Assembly (NCBI GenBank): GCA_902518895.1
Contig: CABYHL010000004.1
Span: forward strand, 1-64,000
Origin: an uncultured Alphaproteobacteria bacterium
Lineage (GTDB): Bacteria > Pseudomonadota > Alphaproteobacteria > HIMB59 > GCA-002718135
Direction of reading: 5' to 3'
Length of the DNA: 64,000 nucleotides
Part shown: piece by piece, positions 42,964-51,071 of the stretch
Layout of the letters: each line of letters begins with the position of its first letter
Numbering within the stretch: the stretch's first letter is position 1
Translations under genes and position numbers: made by a program
Notes under the pieces: generated by a model
Seen by the model: only the letters and a program-made list of their open reading frames with translations
What the model was told of the DNA's origin: nothing
Database searches by the model: none

Positions 42964-44130
42964 ATGCATAAAGATTTTTTTAAACAGATAGAAAGGTATT
43001 TGAATACCTCAGAAAATAAAAAAGTGCTTATTTTGAACGATACATATTATTCATTTAATGCAACAAACGAAAATATCCTAATAGAAGATAATATAGATAA
43101 ATTATTAAACAAAAAAAATATAAGAGTTATTAATACTTTTGATGAATTCAATAATTTAAATGACAATTTTGAAATTATAATAAACATATACTTTTCAACG
43201 AGTTTTATTAATCAGCTTGAATTTTATAATAAAATTTTAGAAATATCAGTGTTAGAAACACGTTTTATAAGTTTTCTACCATTTTTAGGTTTTGTTAACT
43301 ATGGACCGATAAATTTTAATCCTACTTTTTTTAATAATATTAATGCTGGGAAGAATTTTGCAGTCAATGACATTTCTTTCATAGATAAATATGGAAAAAT
43401 TTTGCAAATAAAAAAAGAGCATATTAATAAAATTTTTTTTCAGACGACAGAGAAAGGTAATCAATCTTTTGTTGACCATGTATATAATGAAATTAAAAAT
43501 AATTTTACTGATACTACTATATTGCTTGATATTAATATTAATAAATTAGAATCAATAAATTTTAAATATTTTATACCTGAAAGATTAGGGCATCATTTAT
43601 CAGGACATGGAAGTAAGACATGGATAGATGAAGGAGCGTTTAAAAAATTAATTGATATTATTGAAGTAAAAACAATGATTGATGTGGGTTGTGGACCAGG
43701 TGGGATGATCAAATATAGTAAGAAATTTGGTATTAAGTCAATTGGGGTTGATGGTGATAATTCTATAATTAGAGACCTTGATACTGATTTTTTTTTACAT
43801 GATTATACTAAAGGAATCTTTGAAATAGACTTCGTTTTTGATTTATGTTGGTGTGTCGAATTTTTAGAACATGTTGAAGAAAAGTATGCATCTAATTACT
43901 TCAATACGTTTGCAAAATGTAATTATGTCTTCTGCACTTTTGCGCCTAAAGGAAAAGGAGGATATCATCATGTAAATCTCCAAAATGAAGAATATTGGAT
44001 AAATATGTTCGAAAAATATAATTTTAAATATGATAAAAAAAATACAGAAAAAATTAGATTATCCTCAACAATACACAAAAACTTTGTTAGATCGTTTGGG
44101 CTTCTATTTAAAAATAAAAAAATTATTTAA
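42964..44130 (+). CDS. SAM-dependent methyltransferase domain protein
   Basis: TMIDVGCGPGGMIKYSKKFGIKSIGVDGD; DLCWCVEFLEHVEEKY. Confidence 0.75.
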   Translation: MHKDFFKQIERYLNTSENKKVLILNDTYYSFNATNENILIEDNIDKLLNKKNIRVINTFDEFNNLNDNFEIIINIYFSTSFINQLEFYNKILEISVLETRFISFLPFLGFVNYGPINFNPTFFNNINAGKNFAVNDISFIDKYGKILQIKKEHINKIFFQTTEKGNQSFVDHVYNEIKNNFTDTTILLDININKLESINFKYFIPERLGHHLSGHGSKTWIDEGAFKKLIDIIEVKTMIDVGCGPGGMIKYSKKFGIKSIGVDGDNSIIRDLDTDFFLHDYTKGIFEIDFVFDLCWCVEFLEHVEEKYASNYFNTFAKCNYVFCTFAPKGKGGYHHVNLQNEEYWINMFEKYNFKYDKKNTEKIRLSSTIHKNFVRSFGLLFKNKKII

Positions 44131-44153: not shown

Positions 44154-44172
44154 ACTTGGACGTACGTTTGAC
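44154..44172. repeat. Element D left arm signature
   Basis: ACTTGGACGTACGTTTGAC, 17/19 identical to 44472-44490. Confidence 0.7.
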
Positions 44173-44282
44173 TTAAAAATATTAAATATATTAACATGTT
44201 GTCAAATTAATATATAAGTAACTAGTCCTGATTTAGATACTCTAATTGCTGGGACAAAAAACAAAACGCTAAAGGAGACTAA

Positions 44283-44471
44283 ATGTTCAATTTTAAATAT
44301 TATTTAGCTAATTCTGTTAAGGATTTTATAAAAAAAAGAGAACAGAAAGAAGGACTTAAAAATATCTTTTTTAAAAAATTAGATAAAAACTTTTTTGAAC
44401 TGTCAAAAGAAGAACAAGTTCAAAGAATAGTTAAAATTTTAGAAAGTCAGGGATTTAAATTAAAAAAATAG
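44283..44471 (+). CDS. Small hypothetical protein (62 aa)
   Basis: AAAGGAG SD 5-6 nt upstream of ATG; coherent basic helical sequence. Confidence 0.6.
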   Translation: MFNFKYYLANSVKDFIKKREQKEGLKNIFFKKLDKNFFELSKEEQVQRIVKILESQGFKLKK

Positions 44472-44490
44472 ACTTGGACGTATGTTGGAC
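44472..44490. repeat. Element D right arm signature
   Basis: ACTTGGACGTATGTTGGAC; TTGGAC half-sites 11 nt apart. Confidence 0.7.
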
Positions 44491-44515
44491 ACAAGTCATT
44501 CGTCCGCTTCAAATT

Positions 44516-44563
44516 TGGAGCGGGCGAAGGGATTCGAACCCTCGACTTCAACCTTGGCAAGGT
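44516..44563 (-). repeat. tRNA-Gly 3'-half scar 1 (att)
   Basis: 48 nt identical to 50997-51044 of the intact tRNA-Gly. Confidence 0.95.
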
Positions 44564-44638
44564 AGCCAAATAGTAATGATTTGTAATTTCCTTCAAATTA
44601 TGTGAAATAATTTTAAAAAAAGTTTAGTTTTTGTAATC

Positions 44639-44660
44639 GAAGTGTCCCCCATGTGTCCCC
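44639..44660. repeat. Element C left arm signature
   Basis: GAAGTGTCCCCCATGTGTCCCC; half-sites 11 nt apart. Confidence 0.75.
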
Positions 44661-44756
44661 CAATAGAGAGATCTCTGAACTATTGAAGGCAACAATTCTG
44701 AAAGACAACAAAGGGGCATATTCTTATTGTTTTATAATCATACTTTATCCTGATTA

Positions 44757-45584
44757 CTAAATATAATTAAAATACTTCATTAACGGTTGTAAATTATTAT
44801 CTATAATTTGAACCTGTGTGTTGGATAAAATACCTTTCCATTGATTTAATGTTCCAGATCTGAAAAATTTTGAATGTTTAGATGCTTCATCAAAACCATT
44901 TGAAATTTCTTGAAATTGTAAAGTTTTGAAACTAGTATTTTTTATAATTTTATCAATATTTTTTTTATTATTTAAAATATTTTTATTTGTAATTATATTT
45001 ATAAAAGCAATAATTTTAAATATTATGTTATTTGGTTTAATTAATAGATCTTCATATCTAATAAATAAACATGGGACACTTTTGTATTCTAACCAAGATT
45101 TAATATTTAATTCCCAATTAGAAACCAATTCTCTAGCTCCATTTGCATTTGTCATTAGTTGTTTATTAAAAACAACTTGATTTATAGCTTCATCCAAATT
45201 TATTCCCAAAAAGTTACTTAATGATACAACTACATCTCTAGGATCTCTCACAATATAAATAAAACCTGCATTTACAGTTTCATTTGTAAAACTTTTATGC
45301 CTCACACTATGAGTCTTAAAAAAAAAATTATATTTAGTATTTTCATTTAATTTTTTTTGGCATAAAATAATGTTTTTTGACATCCAGTCATAATCTATCA
45401 ATCCTTTTTTTTCATAAATCTTATTTTTAAATGAAGTAAAGTTCATTTTATCTGATAACAATCTAATTTTTGATAAATCTTTTATATTGATAATATTTTT
45501 TTGTTGAAGCGCAGAAAGAATTATTGCTCTAAGCCAAGTATTGCCAGATTTAGGATACGAAGCCAAAAAAATATTTTTAAACAC
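44757..45584 (-). CDS. Sulfotransferase
   Basis: FLASYPKSGNTWLRAII (PAPS 5' loop), FIYIVRDPRDVVVSLSNF (3' loop). Confidence 0.93.
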   Translation of the reverse strand: MFKNIFLASYPKSGNTWLRAIILSALQQKNIINIKDLSKIRLLSDKMNFTSFKNKIYEKKGLIDYDWMSKNIILCQKKLNENTKYNFFFKTHSVRHKSFTNETVNAGFIYIVRDPRDVVVSLSNFLGINLDEAINQVVFNKQLMTNANGARELVSNWELNIKSWLEYKSVPCLFIRYEDLLIKPNNIIFKIIAFINIITNKNILNNKKNIDKIIKNTSFKTLQFQEISNGFDEASKHSKFFRSGTLNQWKGILSNTQVQIIDNNLQPLMKYFNYI

Positions 45585-45744
45585 TTAAAAATATTTAGGA
45601 AAGTAATTTTAATTTAATATTACAATTTTAAATATTAATTTTTTTTAATAAATATAATTAGTAATTTTAAAAATTTAAATCTGGTAACAAAGTAAGTGAT
45701 AATATTTTTTTGAAAAATTGAGACATTGAATTATTTTGATATAT

Positions 45745-45766
45745 GAAGTGTCCCTCATTTGTCCCC
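45745..45766. repeat. Element C right arm signature
   Basis: GAAGTGTCCCTCATTTGTCCCC, 20/22 identical to 44639-44660. Confidence 0.75.
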
Positions 45767-45801
45767 AGTGATTTTAAAATAATATGAAATTGGCAGTTTT
45801 C

Positions 45802-45852
45802 TGGAGCGGGCGAAGGGATTCGAACCCTCGACTTCAACCTTGGCAAGGTTGC
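45802..45852 (-). repeat. tRNA-Gly 3'-half scar 2 (att)
   Basis: 51 nt identical to 50997-51047. Confidence 0.96.
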
Positions 45853-45930
45853 CAAATACATTGTTTGTTTATTATTGACCAAATATTAAGAAAATATTTG
45901 TAATAAATAAATATATATAAATCCGAAGAA

Positions 45931-45949
45931 CTACTTGGGGGCTACTTAA
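45931..45949. repeat. Element B left arm signature
   Basis: CTACTTGGGGGCTACTTAA; CTACTT half-sites 11 nt apart. Confidence 0.65.
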
Positions 45950-46036
45950 AAATACTTTTTTCTATATAATATTAAATATTACACTTTTTTATAATTATTT
46001 GATTTGATAGATTTTAATAAATATCAAGGAGGTAAA

Positions 46037-46297
46037 ATGTTACAAATAATTAGTCATGAAGTAAAAAATGTTGATGAGTGGTTATCTTTTAATGATGAAA
46101 GAGTAAAAACTTTCTCAAAGTTTGCTGATAATATTGTAGATTTTGTAGATACCGAAAATTCGAATCACGTTTCAATATGCTTTAATGTTTTAGATGAAGA
46201 AGAAATGGACAAAGTACTTAGTTCAGATGAAGTGAAAAATGAGGCTGAAAAGCATGGTGTTGTTTTTGATACTATGAAAAGATTTATTCAAAAATAA
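46037..46297 (+). CDS. Small hypothetical protein (86 aa)
   Basis: AAGGAGG SD just upstream of ATG 46037; MLQIISHEVKNVDEWLSFNDERVKTFSKFADN... Confidence 0.75.
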   Translation: MLQIISHEVKNVDEWLSFNDERVKTFSKFADNIVDFVDTENSNHVSICFNVLDEEEMDKVLSSDEVKNEAEKHGVVFDTMKRFIQK

Positions 46298-46319
46298 ATA
46301 TAAAAAATTAACTTATTGG

Positions 46320-46338
46320 CTACGCAAGGGCTACTTAA
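46320..46338. repeat. Element B right arm signature
   Basis: CTACGCAAGGGCTACTTAA, 15/19 identical to 45931-45949. Confidence 0.6.
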
Positions 46339-46381
46339 CGATTTCTTCGTCGCTTCAAGTTTTAATATTCGGGAGAATACT

Positions 46382-46432
46382 TGGAGCGGGCGAAGGGATT
46401 CGAACCCTCGACTTCAACCTTGGCAAGGTTGC
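46382..46432 (-). repeat. tRNA-Gly 3'-half scar 3 (att)
   Basis: 51 nt identical to 50997-51047. Confidence 0.96.
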
Positions 46433-46497
46433 CATGTACAATTGAGATCGGCCTTTTCCTAGAGAAACTATATCATAAAAATTTAATTCTTTTTTTT

Positions 46498-46519
46498 ATT
46501 GGAGCGTAAGAGGAGCGTT
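46498..46519. repeat. Element A left arm signature
   Basis: ATTGGAGCGTAAGAGGAGCGTT; GGAGCGT half-sites 11 nt apart. Confidence 0.75.
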
Positions 46520-46520
46520 C

Positions 46521-46700
46521 ACCACAGTTACCACAGTTAAAAAAAATTACTGTGGGTCTATTTTTTCAATGATTACTTGAGTTTTTTAACAGTTCACCAC
46601 AGACCACAGTTCTTTTCGTAAATTAAGGGTAAAAATATACTTTTATGATTTACGTTATTTAATTTTAACAAAAACAGCCGTTGTAACTGTGGTCTGTGGT
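46521..46700. repeat. CCACAG repeat cluster with 16-nt perfect inverted repeat
   Basis: ACCACAGTT x2 (46521-46538); ACCACAGACCACAGTT (46596-46611) and its exact reverse complement (46685-46700). Confidence 0.9.
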
Positions 46701-46712
46701 TCTTGAACTTTG

Positions 46713-46751
46713 CCAGAACCCTTAACAATGTCGTAGGTTGGTGGTAGGATA
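46713..46751 (+). promoter_or_regulatory. Shared 39-nt upstream box, copy 1
   Basis: CCAGAACCCTTAACAATGTCGTAGGTTGGTGGTAGGATA just before ATG 46757; second copy at 48287. Confidence 0.65.
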
Positions 46752-46756
46752 TTAAA

Positions 46757-47221
46757 ATGTTCAGACTGTTAGTAGTTTTCTTAAGTATTATCTTGTTCGC
46801 TACTAATTTATTTGCAAATAATATTTTCTTCAAAATAAAGGATATCATATTTCAACAAGTTAGTTTTGCTTGTGAAACTCAATACTCATGGTCTCACACT
46901 GGAATGAACCCAAATTCAAGATATAATTTTATAATTAAATTACACAATAAAGAATCAAATAGAATTATTAAATTTGAGGAGATTATTCAAAATGAAAAAG
47001 AGCCAATAGATTATCTTAAAGCTAAATATTTTAAATTCAAACTTATGAATAGCGACGATAATGAATTTTTAATACTAGTTAATGATTTAATTTACTCAAA
47101 AGAAACGTATTTAAAAATTAATAGAATTAATGGAAAATTGTGGGCAAAAGGCGAAGATAAATGGCTTTCTGTTGGTGAATGTAAAAGGGGGGCTTTTAGT
47201 GTATCTAAACAAAAATTTTAG
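46757..47221 (+). CDS. Secreted hypothetical protein
   Basis: Signal peptide MFRLLVVFLSIILFATNLFANN; preceded by the shared box. Confidence 0.75.
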   Translation: MFRLLVVFLSIILFATNLFANNIFFKIKDIIFQQVSFACETQYSWSHTGMNPNSRYNFIIKLHNKESNRIIKFEEIIQNEKEPIDYLKAKYFKFKLMNSDDNEFLILVNDLIYSKETYLKINRINGKLWAKGEDKWLSVGECKRGAFSVSKQKF

Positions 47222-47245
47222 TATGAATTATTGGGTAATAAATAA

Positions 47246-48178
47246 ATGACTAAAAAAAAAGAAAAAATACAAACCAAAAATTGGATTTATTTAGGTGAAG
47301 TAAAGAATGGGAAGCCTCATGGAAAAGGAAAAATGGTCACTGATTACAATGATGGCGCTGGTAAGGATATTTATATTGGAGAATTTAAGAATGGTAAATT
47401 TCACGGAAAAGGTAAATTTGAATTTGAAGCTAGTGGAGAAAAATATGTTGGTATTTGGAAAAATGGTATTGGTATATCTGGCAAGAGTGTTTCGTCTTTA
47501 TCTTTTAATTATGAAGGAGAGTGGGATAAAGAGTACATAGGAGTGCCCAATGGAAAAGGAATAAGAAAATTTTCAGATGGTACAATAGAGGAAGGGGTTT
47601 TTCATTTTGGTAAGTTGATAAGAGGAAAAAAAAGATACAAAGATGGTAGTGAAGAAATTGGGGAATGGAAAATTAGAGATGGGGAAGATGCAATAATATA
47701 TTCGTATTCTTTTTTTATTGATAAGAAAAAGAAACACAAAATCCAGTTTCATGGTGAATTTGTAAATGGCAAGAAAAAAATTTTATTTGGTGAGGGTGTA
47801 AGAATAGAGACTAAAAAATCAAAACCAACTTTGTACCTTATTAGTATTGGTAGGTTTAAGAATGGCAAAATAGAAGGTGACGGCAGAAAGATACAATATA
47901 AAGATTTGCAATTAAAAAAACCGATTTGGTTTTATAATGGTAAATTTAAAAATAATATAGAAAATGGTGAAGGAACTTCAATTCAAACACCTTTTAATCA
48001 ACTAGATAAATTAAAAATGAAAGATGGAAAAATAGTAAAAATAAAAACTTTCAGATTAAATGAAGAACAAATTAAAGAATTTTATGAAGAATACTATGAT
48101 CAGGCTATAAATCTTCTTAGCTATGAAAAATATAAATATAATCAATTACCGAAGGAATTAAGAAAATTGATTAATTAA
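47246..48178 (+). CDS. MORN-repeat protein, no signal peptide
   Basis: Repeated YxGEFKNGKFHGKGKFE-type units. Confidence 0.85.
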   Translation: MTKKKEKIQTKNWIYLGEVKNGKPHGKGKMVTDYNDGAGKDIYIGEFKNGKFHGKGKFEFEASGEKYVGIWKNGIGISGKSVSSLSFNYEGEWDKEYIGVPNGKGIRKFSDGTIEEGVFHFGKLIRGKKRYKDGSEEIGEWKIRDGEDAIIYSYSFFIDKKKKHKIQFHGEFVNGKKKILFGEGVRIETKKSKPTLYLISIGRFKNGKIEGDGRKIQYKDLQLKKPIWFYNGKFKNNIENGEGTSIQTPFNQLDKLKMKDGKIVKIKTFRLNEEQIKEFYEEYYDQAINLLSYEKYKYNQLPKELRKLIN

Positions 48179-48286
48179 AACAAGATAGCGTTTGCTAAAA
48201 TATACAAGGCTGTAAGTACACAGAAAATCAGTACTAGGTATCTGATAATAAACATAATTTAATATAATAAAAAATAGTTACTATGA

Positions 48287-48325
48287 CCAGAACCCTTAAC
48301 AATCTTCTTAGTTGGTGATAGGATA
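48287..48325 (+). promoter_or_regulatory. Shared 39-nt upstream box, copy 2
   Basis: CCAGAACCCTTAACAATCTTCTTAGTTGGTGATAGGATA, just before ATG 48339. Confidence 0.65.
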
Positions 48326-48338
48326 GATATAATTATTT

Positions 48339-50588
48339 ATGAATTTGAATATTAAAGCTATCAATTTAATTTTCTTGATATTTATATTTATCAGTCTTTT
48401 CAGTATAAAAAATATTATTAATGCTTCAGAATGTAAAATAAATGGTAATGTTGTAGAAACAGATGACACTTGTATAGGTGAAATTAAAAATACAAATTCT
48501 TCTGTTTTTGGAAAATTTGAAAACAAGCAATTGAATGGATTAATAGAAGCAAAATTTGCTAATGATTCTATTTATGTTGGAGGCTCAAAAAATTCTAAAC
48601 TTGAAGGATATGGTTTTAGAAAATATCCAAATGGGGATGAATTTATTGGAGATTTTAAAAATGATATTTTCAGAGAAGGTATACAAAATGAAAACACTGG
48701 TTTTATAAATTATTTTAAATTGGACGAAGAAGGGAAATTTCAAGGCTTTCACGCTATACTATATCCAAATAATGAAAGAATATATATTGGAGAAATAAAG
48801 AATCAACTAATCGATGGAGAGGGTTTTGCCTACAATCTTCTAGACAATGAATTAGGTGATAAAGATAGTTATGAAATAGGAATATTTAAAAACGGAAAGC
48901 TAAAGACTGATTATTCAAAAAGTCTTCCTAAATGCAAATTCGATAAAAATAGCTCTATAGAATCAAATGAAAGATGTTTTGGTGATAAAAAATTTGCAAA
49001 TATCAGAAGTGTAGGACTATTTATAAATAAAAATTTGTCATTAGGCTTTGAGATATTTGATAATGGGTTTTTAAGCTTAGGTCAATTTAAACCTAGACAA
49101 AAGGGCTATAGTTCAGGCCTTCATGGAGTAGGTTCATTTATACAAGCTAATAGAAAACAAATTCAATTTGGTAAGTTTCATTATGGTGATAGACATGGCT
49201 ATACAGTAATTATTGATGAAAGAAGGGGTTATAGTTATTTTGGAGAAATATATAAAAATAGGAAGAACGGTTTTGGTTTTGAGCGTGATAACGAATATCA
49301 CGAATACTTGGGTATCTTTAAAGATGATTATTTAGATGGCTATGGTGAAAAATATTTAATCAAAGAAAACATAAGGTACAAAGGCACGTTTAAAAAAAAT
49401 ATTTTAGATGGTGTTGGAACCTATGAGAATAATGATATTGTTTATTATGGAGAATTTAAAGATAATATCTTTAATGGTTTAGGAAAGTTAACTGATAAAC
49501 AAAAATCAAAGAAGGTTGGTTTTTTTAATAATGGTAATTTTGAAACTAATTATAATTTTTGTGTTTCTAAAGATACGTTAGGTTATAATAAAATTATTTA
49601 TGGAAAAAAAAGTTGTGGATCTCAAAATTTTGATACTGCTTCAATTGATGATTTTTTAAATCAAAAAACGAATTTTTTTAACTACGATAATTGGAATGCT
49701 GAATATTATACCAATCGAAAAAAACCGTATTTTGCTCGAGAAGATATGGAAGAGTGTAAAATTGTAAACAACTTCGTGGATAGTTTTGATAAGTGTTATG
49801 GAACTATAATGGAGGAAGGAAGAGAATTCTCTGGAGTTTTTATTAATGGAAAGAAAAATGGCTTTGGATATTATGTTGTACTTTATGGAGAAGAAGAGGG
49901 AGATAAATTTGAAGGAAATTGGGTTGATGACTTAAAAAATGGTTGGGGTAAATATACAACAGCACAGGGAGCAAATACAATTGCTAAGTATATTGATGGA
50001 ATTTTTCAAACAAATTTTTTTTTATATAATGGTGGTCCGGCTAAATATGAAAATGATCAAATAGTTTTTTTAGATGAAAATGAAGGTTCAAACGAAGAGG
50101 AGATTGATGACTGGTTTGGGTATCTACCATGTGAATTGAAAGACAATATAGTAATAACACTTAAAGAGTGTAAGGTAAAAAAATTAGTTGTTGGTGATAC
50201 TGAATTTACGGGAATTTATTACAATGCTATGAGAAATGGATATGGTGAACTACTAGCTGGTGAGAAAAAAGATACTAAGTATAAAGGCAACTTTGTAGAT
50301 AATAAATTTGAAGGTGATGGGATTTTAATTTATCCCGACAAACAGACTTATATTGGTAATTTTAAAAATAATAACTTTAATGGTCAGGGTGCTATGTATT
50401 ATCCTGATGGAACAACTTATTATGGAAATTTTATTAAAGGATGGCAAACTGGTAAAGGCAAATTAGTTTACAGAAATGGTGATATAGTTGAAGGTGAGTT
50501 CTTAAATGGAAATATAATAGGAAATTTTTACTTTAACGATAAGTTAGCAAAATTAGTTGATGGAGTAATAGTTTTAATCAATGAATAA
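48339..50588 (+). CDS. Large MORN-repeat protein with N-terminal signal/anchor
   Basis: N-terminal hydrophobic segment; many units such as YIGNFKNNNFNGQGAMYYPDGTTYYGNF. Confidence 0.9.
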   Translation: MNLNIKAINLIFLIFIFISLFSIKNIINASECKINGNVVETDDTCIGEIKNTNSSVFGKFENKQLNGLIEAKFANDSIYVGGSKNSKLEGYGFRKYPNGDEFIGDFKNDIFREGIQNENTGFINYFKLDEEGKFQGFHAILYPNNERIYIGEIKNQLIDGEGFAYNLLDNELGDKDSYEIGIFKNGKLKTDYSKSLPKCKFDKNSSIESNERCFGDKKFANIRSVGLFINKNLSLGFEIFDNGFLSLGQFKPRQKGYSSGLHGVGSFIQANRKQIQFGKFHYGDRHGYTVIIDERRGYSYFGEIYKNRKNGFGFERDNEYHEYLGIFKDDYLDGYGEKYLIKENIRYKGTFKKNILDGVGTYENNDIVYYGEFKDNIFNGLGKLTDKQKSKKVGFFNNGNFETNYNFCVSKDTLGYNKIIYGKKSCGSQNFDTASIDDFLNQKTNFFNYDNWNAEYYTNRKKPYFAREDMEECKIVNNFVDSFDKCYGTIMEEGREFSGVFINGKKNGFGYYVVLYGEEEGDKFEGNWVDDLKNGWGKYTTAQGANTIAKYIDGIFQTNFFLYNGGPAKYENDQIVFLDENEGSNEEEIDDWFGYLPCELKDNIVITLKECKVKKLVVGDTEFTGIYYNAMRNGYGELLAGEKKDTKYKGNFVDNKFEGDGILIYPDKQTYIGNFKNNNFNGQGAMYYPDGTTYYGNFIKGWQTGKGKLVYRNGDIVEGEFLNGNIIGNFYFNDKLAKLVDGVIVLINE

Positions 50589-50920
50589 AACGGGCTAATG
50601 ATAGGCCTTACCACTAACCCGGTCAGCCTATACGCTAATTGAAGCTGTGAACAATGATATTCTTCGTTCTTCCACTGCTTTTTCTTTTTATGTTTATCCT
50701 CATTGATGTAACGTTTAAAAAGATCGCCAAGTGTTACTTTGGAAGCTGTTGAATAGTCCGAGTAATCCCCTCGATCTAATTTTGTTTCCATGGACCTAGA
50801 CCACCTTTTGGCTTCGGTTCGAGTCATGAAAGATTTAGTTATTGTCTTTATACCTAATCGCCTTATGCGAACTTGGTAACTAGTTTTGTTTAAGTATTTA
50901 CGCTTTTGAATAGTAGCCAT
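50586..50920 (-). pseudogene. Truncated tyrosine integrase (N-terminal part only)
   Basis: MATIQKRKYLNKTSYQVRIRRLGIKTITKSFMTRTEAKRWSRSMETKLDRGDYSD... ; adjacent to tRNA; no catalytic domain; the track ORF's tail (to 50528) reads antisense through the MORN gene. Confidence 0.8.
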
Positions 50921-50952
50921 AATTTCTCACTTTCTAGGAAAAGCTTGGCTCT

Positions 50953-50974
50953 ATTGGATCGTAAGTGGAGCGTT
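50953..50974. repeat. Element A right arm signature
   Basis: ATTGGATCGTAAGTGGAGCGTT, 20/22 identical to 46498-46519. Confidence 0.75.
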
Positions 50975-50996
50975 TGAATCTAACCCACTCAATATT

Positions 50997-51071
50997 TGGA
51001 GCGGGCGAAGGGATTCGAACCCTCGACTTCAACCTTGGCAAGGTTGCGCTCTACCCCTGAGCTACGCCCGC
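50997..51071 (-). tRNA. tRNA-Gly(GCC), CCA encoded
   Basis: GCGGGCGTAGCTCAGGGGTAGAGCGCAACCTTGCCAAGGTTGAAGTCGAGGGTTCGAATCCCTTCGCCCGCTCCA folds as a cloverleaf with GCC anticodon. Confidence 0.97.

What the first reader, a model, noticed from the sequence alone, without database searches (positions are those of the whole stretch)
44154..51071. Stack of minimal cargo elements at one tRNA-Gly, each with its own 11-nt-phased arm signature at both ends
Seen directly: three exact 48-51 nt copies of the tRNA-Gly 3' half (44516, 45802, 46382) plus the intact gene (50997-51071). On the CCA side of each copy, 23-44 nt away, and on the anticodon side of each of the three scars, 66-79 nt away, sits a short direct-repeat signature whose two half-sites are exactly 11 nt apart. 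Signature sequence differs by element, but the inner signatures facing each other match: D TTGGACGTAYGTTKGAC (44154/44472), C GAAGTGTCCCYCATKTGTCCCC (44639/45745), B CTACNNNNGGGCTACTTAA (45931/46320), A ATTGGAKCGTAAGWGGAGCGTT (46498/50953). Established: tyrosine recombinases integrate at tRNA 3' ends, displace the old 3' half, and bind arm-type sites flanking the att core. Inference: the 11-nt (one helical turn) pairs are arm sites giving each element its integrase identity while all share one core. Elements B, C and D carry one ORF and no integrase, so they may be cargo units mobilised in trans, resembling a tRNA-anchored cassette array.
Basis: partly seen in the sequence, partly recalled or inferred. 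Interest (0 to 1): 0.88.

Follow-up and report, generated by a model that had tools for sequence, protein, structure and literature searches.

The report
tRNA-anchored array of integrase-less gene cassettes
Next to one glycine tRNA gene, this small marine bacterium and its relatives stack one-gene DNA units between copies of the tRNA end; each unit carries its own matching end-tag, typical of integrase-binding sites, and whole units have been swapped between species although most carry no integrase.

Summary
The three tRNA-Gly scars and four end-signatures sit where stated, half-sites exactly 11 nt apart. Across 124 tRNA-Gly loci of the order, 74 carry scars, giving 131 intervals (0.48-13.8 kb), all in one orientation. 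Exact 7-mer repeats at 11 nt are 56-fold enriched beside tRNA cores; other spacings are not, apart from weak enrichment at 10 nt. The same phased pair lies upstream of 92 of 151 related integrase genes, so the signatures are very probably integrase arm sites. Intervals behave as units: near-identical units (99.6% for C) occur in genomes whose flanks are about 85% alike, in different stack orders; identity stops at the cores, and exact empty/filled pairs exist. Only 12 of 131 intervals hold a full integrase; 111 hold no trace. In three arm families, integrase-less units share arm sequence and spacing with integrase-bearing ones. Best explanation: non-autonomous cassettes moved in trans by cognate integrases. 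Excision and the helpers of the B, C and D arms were not shown. Closest relatives: CIMEs, MITEs/CALINs, additive tRNA islands, tycheposons. New: single-gene scale, diversified arm identities around one core, and apparent re-arming of the same cargo.

The parts
50997..51071 (-). intact tRNA-Gly(GCC), the landing site
   Evidence: ARAGORN
46382..46432 (-). displaced tRNA-Gly 3' half (scar between B and A), 51/51
45802..45852 (-). displaced tRNA-Gly 3' half (scar between C and B), 51/51
44516..44566 (-). displaced tRNA-Gly 3' half (scar between D and C), 50/51
46499..46519 (+). element A, left arm pair TTGGAGCGTAAGAGGAGCGTT
50954..50974 (+). element A, right arm pair TTGGATCGTAAGTGGAGCGTT
45931..45949 (+). 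element B, left arm pair (GGCTAC type)
46320..46338 (+). element B, right arm pair (GGCTAC type)
44639..44660 (+). element C, left arm pair (GTGTCCC type)
45745..45766 (+). element C, right arm pair (GTGTCCC type)
44156..44172 (+). element D, left arm pair (TTGGACG type); the scar outside it is lost here
44474..44490 (+). element D, right arm pair (TTGGACG type)
44283..44471 (+). cargo of D: 62-aa ORF, also intact in G128
44757..45584 (-). cargo of C: 275-aa sulfotransferase (PF00685), intact in 15 related units
46037..46297 (+). cargo of B: 86-aa protein without Pfam match, in 11 related units
46757..47221 (+). cargo of A: 154-aa ORF
47246..48178 (+). cargo of A: MORN-repeat protein
48339..50588 (+). 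cargo of A: MORN-repeat protein, 749 aa
50528..50920 (-). truncated integrase of A; about the first 90 residues are homologous (50642-50920)

Best explanation
The locus is a tRNA-anchored array of small integrative units. Each unit has the layout of an integrated element: tRNA 3'-half core, left arm, cargo, right arm, core. A lambda/P2-type tyrosine integrase would bind the two 11-bp-spaced half-sites at each end through its N-terminal domain and recombine the shared tRNA core, inserting the unit at the functional tRNA-Gly and pushing older units outward, each capped by a displaced 3' half. Most units, including B, C and D, have no integrase and are non-autonomous cassettes, moved in trans by an integrase that recognises their arms, as MITEs and CALIN cassettes are moved by foreign enzymes. 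Arm identity differs between units while the core is common, so several integrase specificities share one landing site. Shown by comparative sequence: unit structure, 11-bp arms, their association with integrase genes, precise whole-unit gain, exchange between species, absence of integrase, and arms shared by integrase-less and integrase-bearing elements. Inferred: arm binding, excision and insertion in trans, and the route between cells.
For: 11-nt phasing 56-fold enriched at cores and at both ends of intervals. The same phased pair upstream of 92 of 151 related integrases. Twelve recurrent units, 48 intervals, near-identical across genomes with 78-88% identical flanks and in different orders. 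Identity stops at the cores. Empty/filled pairs with 0-bp offset, e.g. L074/L072. 111 of 131 intervals without integrase trace. Integrase-less and integrase-bearing elements share arms and geometry in three families, and in the GTCGG family similarity ends at the arm. Cargo under purifying selection.
Against: No excised circle, binding or recombination was observed. No integrase with B, C, D or TATTG arms was found. A-type units carry integrase remnants, so some units are decayed elements. Recombination between 51-bp cores could also give core-to-core exchange. Genomes are incomplete, so helper absence within a genome is not established. 45 of 131 intervals have no clear matched arm pair, some because a scar between two units was lost.
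Confidence: 0.68

Rival explanations
1. Decay plus homologous exchange (CIME-like): the short units are remnants of larger integrase-bearing elements that lost the integrase after insertion, and they spread between genomes by ordinary homologous recombination through shared cores and neighbouring units, with no integrase acting in trans.
For: A-type units keep N-terminal integrase fragments of 40 to 120 residues with several break points. Some intervals have fused or lost scars (E005, E006, E087). The 51-bp cores are shared.
Against: B, C and D families have no integrase trace. The same units occur in reversed order and with different neighbours, with unalignable DNA directly beyond both cores. 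Integrase-less GTCGG units match the autonomous element only over the core-arm module rather than over integrase remnants. Empty/filled sites are exact.
Confidence: 0.22
2. Phage-satellite units: the cassettes are moved by integrases and particles of temperate phages that attack these bacteria.
For: Some viral contigs have 11-nt-phased pairs beside a tRNA-Gly core, e.g. L130 with the same pair on both sides; related integrases occur in many viral contigs.
Against: No viral contig carries A or TATTG arms. Contigs with C-type arms have much higher GC and no tRNA core was found in those scanned. No cargo annotated here is phage-like by Pfam.
Confidence: 0.06
3. The 11-nt pairs are operators or directionality-factor (Xis-type) sites, not integrase arm sites.
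For: They lie about 27-54 bp upstream of many integrase start codons, where an autoregulatory operator would lie; Xis-type proteins also bind direct repeats (own knowledge).
Against: Pairs of matching sequence sit at both ends of units, including units with no integrase gene; Xis-type sites are usually on one arm only (own knowledge).
Confidence: 0.04

Closest known systems
CIMEs (cis-mobilizable elements) in tandem arrays, e.g. Streptococcus (PMC7563491)
   Same: Tandem units flanked by attachment sites at one gene's 3' end, many without recombination genes, older ones further from the target.
   Different: CIMEs derive from conjugative or mobilizable elements and are thought to move in cis after accretion; here no conjugation genes were seen in the window's units, and neighbouring units have different arm identities.
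CALINs and MITEs (reviewed in PMC11389934)
   Same: Short non-autonomous units with recognition ends, thought to depend on an enzyme encoded elsewhere.
   Different: CALINs use attC sites and integron integrases; MITEs use transposase ends and lack protein genes. Here ends are arm-core modules of a lambda/P2-type integrase at a tRNA gene, with protein cargo.
Additive islands with tRNA-Lys 3'-end repeats in Methylopumilus (PMC10872708)
   Same: Repeated 20-bp tRNA 3' ends delimiting inserts of 330 bp to 42 kb in a streamlined aquatic bacterium.
   Different: No arm signatures, unit identities or integrase dependence are described in the passages I read.
Tycheposons (Hackl 2023, known to me through PMC10872708 and PMC11389934)
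   Same: tRNA-anchored cargo elements of marine bacteria with a tyrosine recombinase.
   Different: Described as 4-200 kb with a recombinase; most units here are 0.5-2 kb and have none.
Lambda/P2/HP1-type integrases
   Same: PF00589 catalytic domain, three-domain model aligned with full-length lambda Int, direct-repeat arm pairs.
   Different: 26 distinct right-arm 7-mers occur in one geometry class at one shared core.

Membership tests
Tyrosine-integrase integrative element at a tRNA 3' end | Intact tRNA restored, displaced 3' fragment at the far end, precise insertion | tested here: met
Tyrosine-integrase integrative element at a tRNA 3' end | Encodes its own integrase | tested here: not met
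   B, C and D have none, A only a truncated one; 12 of 131 intervals have a full one
CIME | Flanked by attachment sites, no recombination genes | tested here: met
CIME | Derived by deletion from a conjugative or mobilizable element | tested here: inconclusive
   A-type units show integrase truncation; no conjugation gene among the window's cargo by Pfam; other cargo not scanned
CIME | Moves in cis after accretion of an active element | not testable with these tools
   needs an excision or transfer assay
Tycheposon | 4-200 kb element at a tRNA with a tyrosine recombinase | tested here: not met
   B, C, D are 0.5-1.3 kb without recombinase; only the larger integrase-bearing elements (5-13.8 kb) fit
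Integron / CALIN | attC sites and an IntI-type integrase | tested here: not met
   repeats are tRNA-Gly 3' halves; the linked integrases are lambda/P2-like in layout; no dedicated attC search was run
Phage satellite | Packaging or replication genes and a helper phage | not tested
   only Pfam was run on window cargo; arm searches in viral contigs were negative or unrelated

The most novel reading that the evidence does not exclude
An order-wide, integron-like gene-exchange platform built on one tRNA gene: single-gene cassettes with no recombinase of their own, sorted by an arm-site code of many distinct specificities around one common core, mobilised in trans by several integrases, and able to be re-armed (same cargo, new arms).
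Probability: 0.4. Interest if true: 0.85.

Novelty: new variant of a known kind. Interest (0 to 1): 0.7.

Why it matters
Streamlined ocean bacteria carry few recombinases yet exchange accessory genes. This locus offers a concrete carrier small enough to move one gene at a time, and it makes two questions testable: do non-autonomous integrative cassettes exist outside integrons and transposons, and how does arm-site specificity diversify while the core stays fixed. The phased arm pairs are also a practical sign for finding integrase-less elements that gene-based tools miss.

Tried and rejected
Chance repeats: rejected by shift controls and by element interiors. A general ungapped end-to-end match without the phase requirement was too weak (9 of 75 above the 99% null) and was replaced by a phased score. 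That score's threshold was chosen after seeing the data and its mismatched-pair null is high (99% at 30) because units of one arm type recur; the shift control is the better one. Core homologues in GenBank phages: only ordinary tRNA genes and phages of other hosts. Arm patterns in viral contigs: A none, TATTG none, C 11 contigs of 40-68% GC, GTCGG 5 not examined. The conserved chromosomal recombinase of about 365 aa found once in most genomes of the genus (L185 here) was considered as helper, but it matches only PF00589 without an arm-domain match and looks Xer-like; not tested further. N-domain versus catalytic-domain correlation with arm sequence was not discriminating (partial 0.22 versus 0.25).

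Full report
WHAT IS THERE. The window is contig C4 of a 1.27-Mb, 71% complete genome. One relative is a single contig of 1,410,127 bp, which I recall as the genome size of HIMB59. I therefore place the genome in the HIMB59/AEGEAN-169 order; this is inference. tRNA-Gly(GCC) is at 50997-51071, minus strand, followed outward by three copies of its 3' half.

SIGNATURES. All four sequence pairs are at the stated places with half-sites 11 nt apart.

IS IT MORE THAN CHANCE. I collected the same locus from the order: 124 loci, 74 with at least one scar, 131 scar-to-scar intervals, up to six cores per locus, none in antisense. Exact 7-mer repeats at shift 11 occur at 2.36/kb within 110 bp of cores and 0.042/kb elsewhere; shifts 7-9 and 12-21 give ratios between 0 and 1.6, shift 10 gives 5.4 from five hits (on the first 75 intervals' loci). 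Only 3 of 45 scar-free loci have such a pair beside the tRNA, so the pairs belong to the elements rather than to the tRNA. The A, C, D and TATTG-type arm patterns were searched in 162 genomes: 14, 13, 5 and 22 hits, no hits of the reversed control patterns. The hits I could place lie at this locus; one TATTG hit (G154:C45) is on the tRNA-Gly contig but on the opposite strand.

THE SIGNATURES ARE VERY PROBABLY INTEGRASE ARMS. Four full integrases of this family at other sites (tRNA-Leu in G002, a tRNA-Leu-like fragment in G036, G003:C7, and beside tRNA-Ala in G081) each have their own phased pair about 42-46 bp upstream of the start codon. In 151 related integrases from genomes and viral contigs, 92 have an exact 7-mer repeat at 11 nt in the 130 bp upstream; the next best shift, 12, has 13. 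The enzyme model (mean pLDDT 84) has an N-terminal beta-beta-beta-alpha domain, and Foldseek aligns it with full-length lambda Int and with Tn1549 Int. Main geometry classes: scars of 49-59 nt with arms 116-133 nt from the left core start and 18-47 nt from the right core; scars of 23-31 nt with arms 70-76 and 34-48; and a GTCACAA class with scars of 49 nt up to the whole tRNA and arms 105-110 and 67-69. Two or more crossover positions in the same tRNA are therefore in use.

THE INTERVALS ARE UNITS. Twelve recurrent units cover 48 intervals. Window C is 99.6% identical to a unit in G136 while the flank is 85% identical; u5 is 99.9% against 83%; u4 99.6% against 92%. Units u0 (C cargo) and u1 (B cargo) occur in both orders and in different company. 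Identity stops at the cores: 300-350 bp beyond the unit are unalignable where neighbours differ, or fall to the flank level where both abut the tRNA. Empty/filled comparisons show the flank ending at the tRNA in one genome and at the oldest scar in another with 0-bp offset, e.g. L074/L072, where the difference is one 558-bp B-type unit. Element D, which lacks its outer scar here, is a complete 479-bp unit in G128.

INTEGRASE-LESS UNITS. Full integrases are in 12 of 131 intervals (5.0-13.8 kb), fragments in 8 (all A-type), none in 111 (median 1.2 kb). Cargo is maintained: the 275-aa sulfotransferase is open in 15 units (median dN/dS 0.30) and the small B protein in 11 (0.14). Three arm families contain both kinds of element. 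GTCACAA: 8 with and 7 without integrase. GTCGG: the G110 integrase with this arm beside the tRNA, four units without. TCGACA: G143 with, two without. Two of the four GTCGG units share 97-98% with G110 over the core-to-arm module and the other two share the core plus the arm, and similarity ends there; GTCACAA units mostly share the right core-arm module at 83-95%; TCGACA units share longer ends at 72-85%. The G110 interval itself has an A-type left arm and a GTCGG right arm, so a scar was probably lost inside it.

DECAY AND RE-ARMING. A-type units keep 40 to 120 residues of integrase with several break points, and conserved ends around different cargo, as expected if non-autonomous units arise by internal deletion and cargo replacement. 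The sulfotransferase cargo occurs with GTGTCCC arms in some units and GTGGGACG arms in others; in the latter a degraded GTGTCCC-like pair lies just inside the new right arm. I read this as a change of integrase dependence; it rests on one family.

MECHANISM. Most likely an incoming element or phage supplies an integrase; the enzyme binds arm pairs at both ends of units of its own specificity and excises or inserts them at the common tRNA core; units reach new cells by an unknown route. Trans action is inferred. Helpers for B, C, D and the TATTG class are unknown.

COMPARISON. It works like CALINs and MITEs (PMC11389934) and resembles CIME tandems (PMC7563491) and the tRNA-Lys-repeat islands of Methylopumilus (PMC10872708). 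It is not an integron, and B, C and D fall outside the size and recombinase description of tycheposons. The HIMB59 genomic-island paper I found concerns phosphate islands; 'integrase' and 'recombinase' do not occur in its main text and 'tRNA' occurs once (PMC10734472). I know of no report of diversified arm codes on integrase-less single-gene units, but the search covered open papers only and Hackl 2023 itself was not readable.

VERDICT. Observation confirmed; arm and unit interpretation well supported; mobilisation in trans probable but unproven. New variant of a known kind.

Noticed in passing
46713-46751 and 48287-48325: A conserved leader of about 39 nt (CCAGAACCCTTAACAAT...GTTGGTGGTAGGATA) directly precedes start codons of unrelated cargo ORFs in A. 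A strict pattern has 10 hits in 162 genomes, several placed in integrase-family elements including the tRNA-Leu element of G002. Function unknown.
   Followed up: partly
44215-44293: Possible SAM-II (SAM_alpha, RF00521) riboswitch just upstream of the 62-aa ORF of D: 21.5 bits, below the gathering score of 36, but the conserved TGATTT, TTGC, AAACAA and CGCTAAAG blocks are present.
   Followed up: partly
L067:2744-2833 and the matching place in L085, L393, L394, L414: Sulfotransferase units with GTGGGACG arms carry an ARAGORN-callable tRNA-Ser(TGA) at their left end; window C has a degraded-looking counterpart there by eye.
   Followed up: partly
TATTG-class units, e.g. G139:C1:397359-401011 (L418): Units with TATTG-type arms and 23-31 nt scars stack repeatedly at tRNA-Gly, but no integrase with such arms was found.
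   Followed up: partly
G000:C41:736-1794 (L185): A conserved tyrosine recombinase of about 365 aa is the only full PF00589 match in this genome and occurs once in most genomes of the genus.
   Followed up: no
42964-44130: The methyltransferase-like ORF left of D ends inside the left end of D, where D's outer scar is missing; its C-terminus may be a fusion created by that loss.
   Followed up: no
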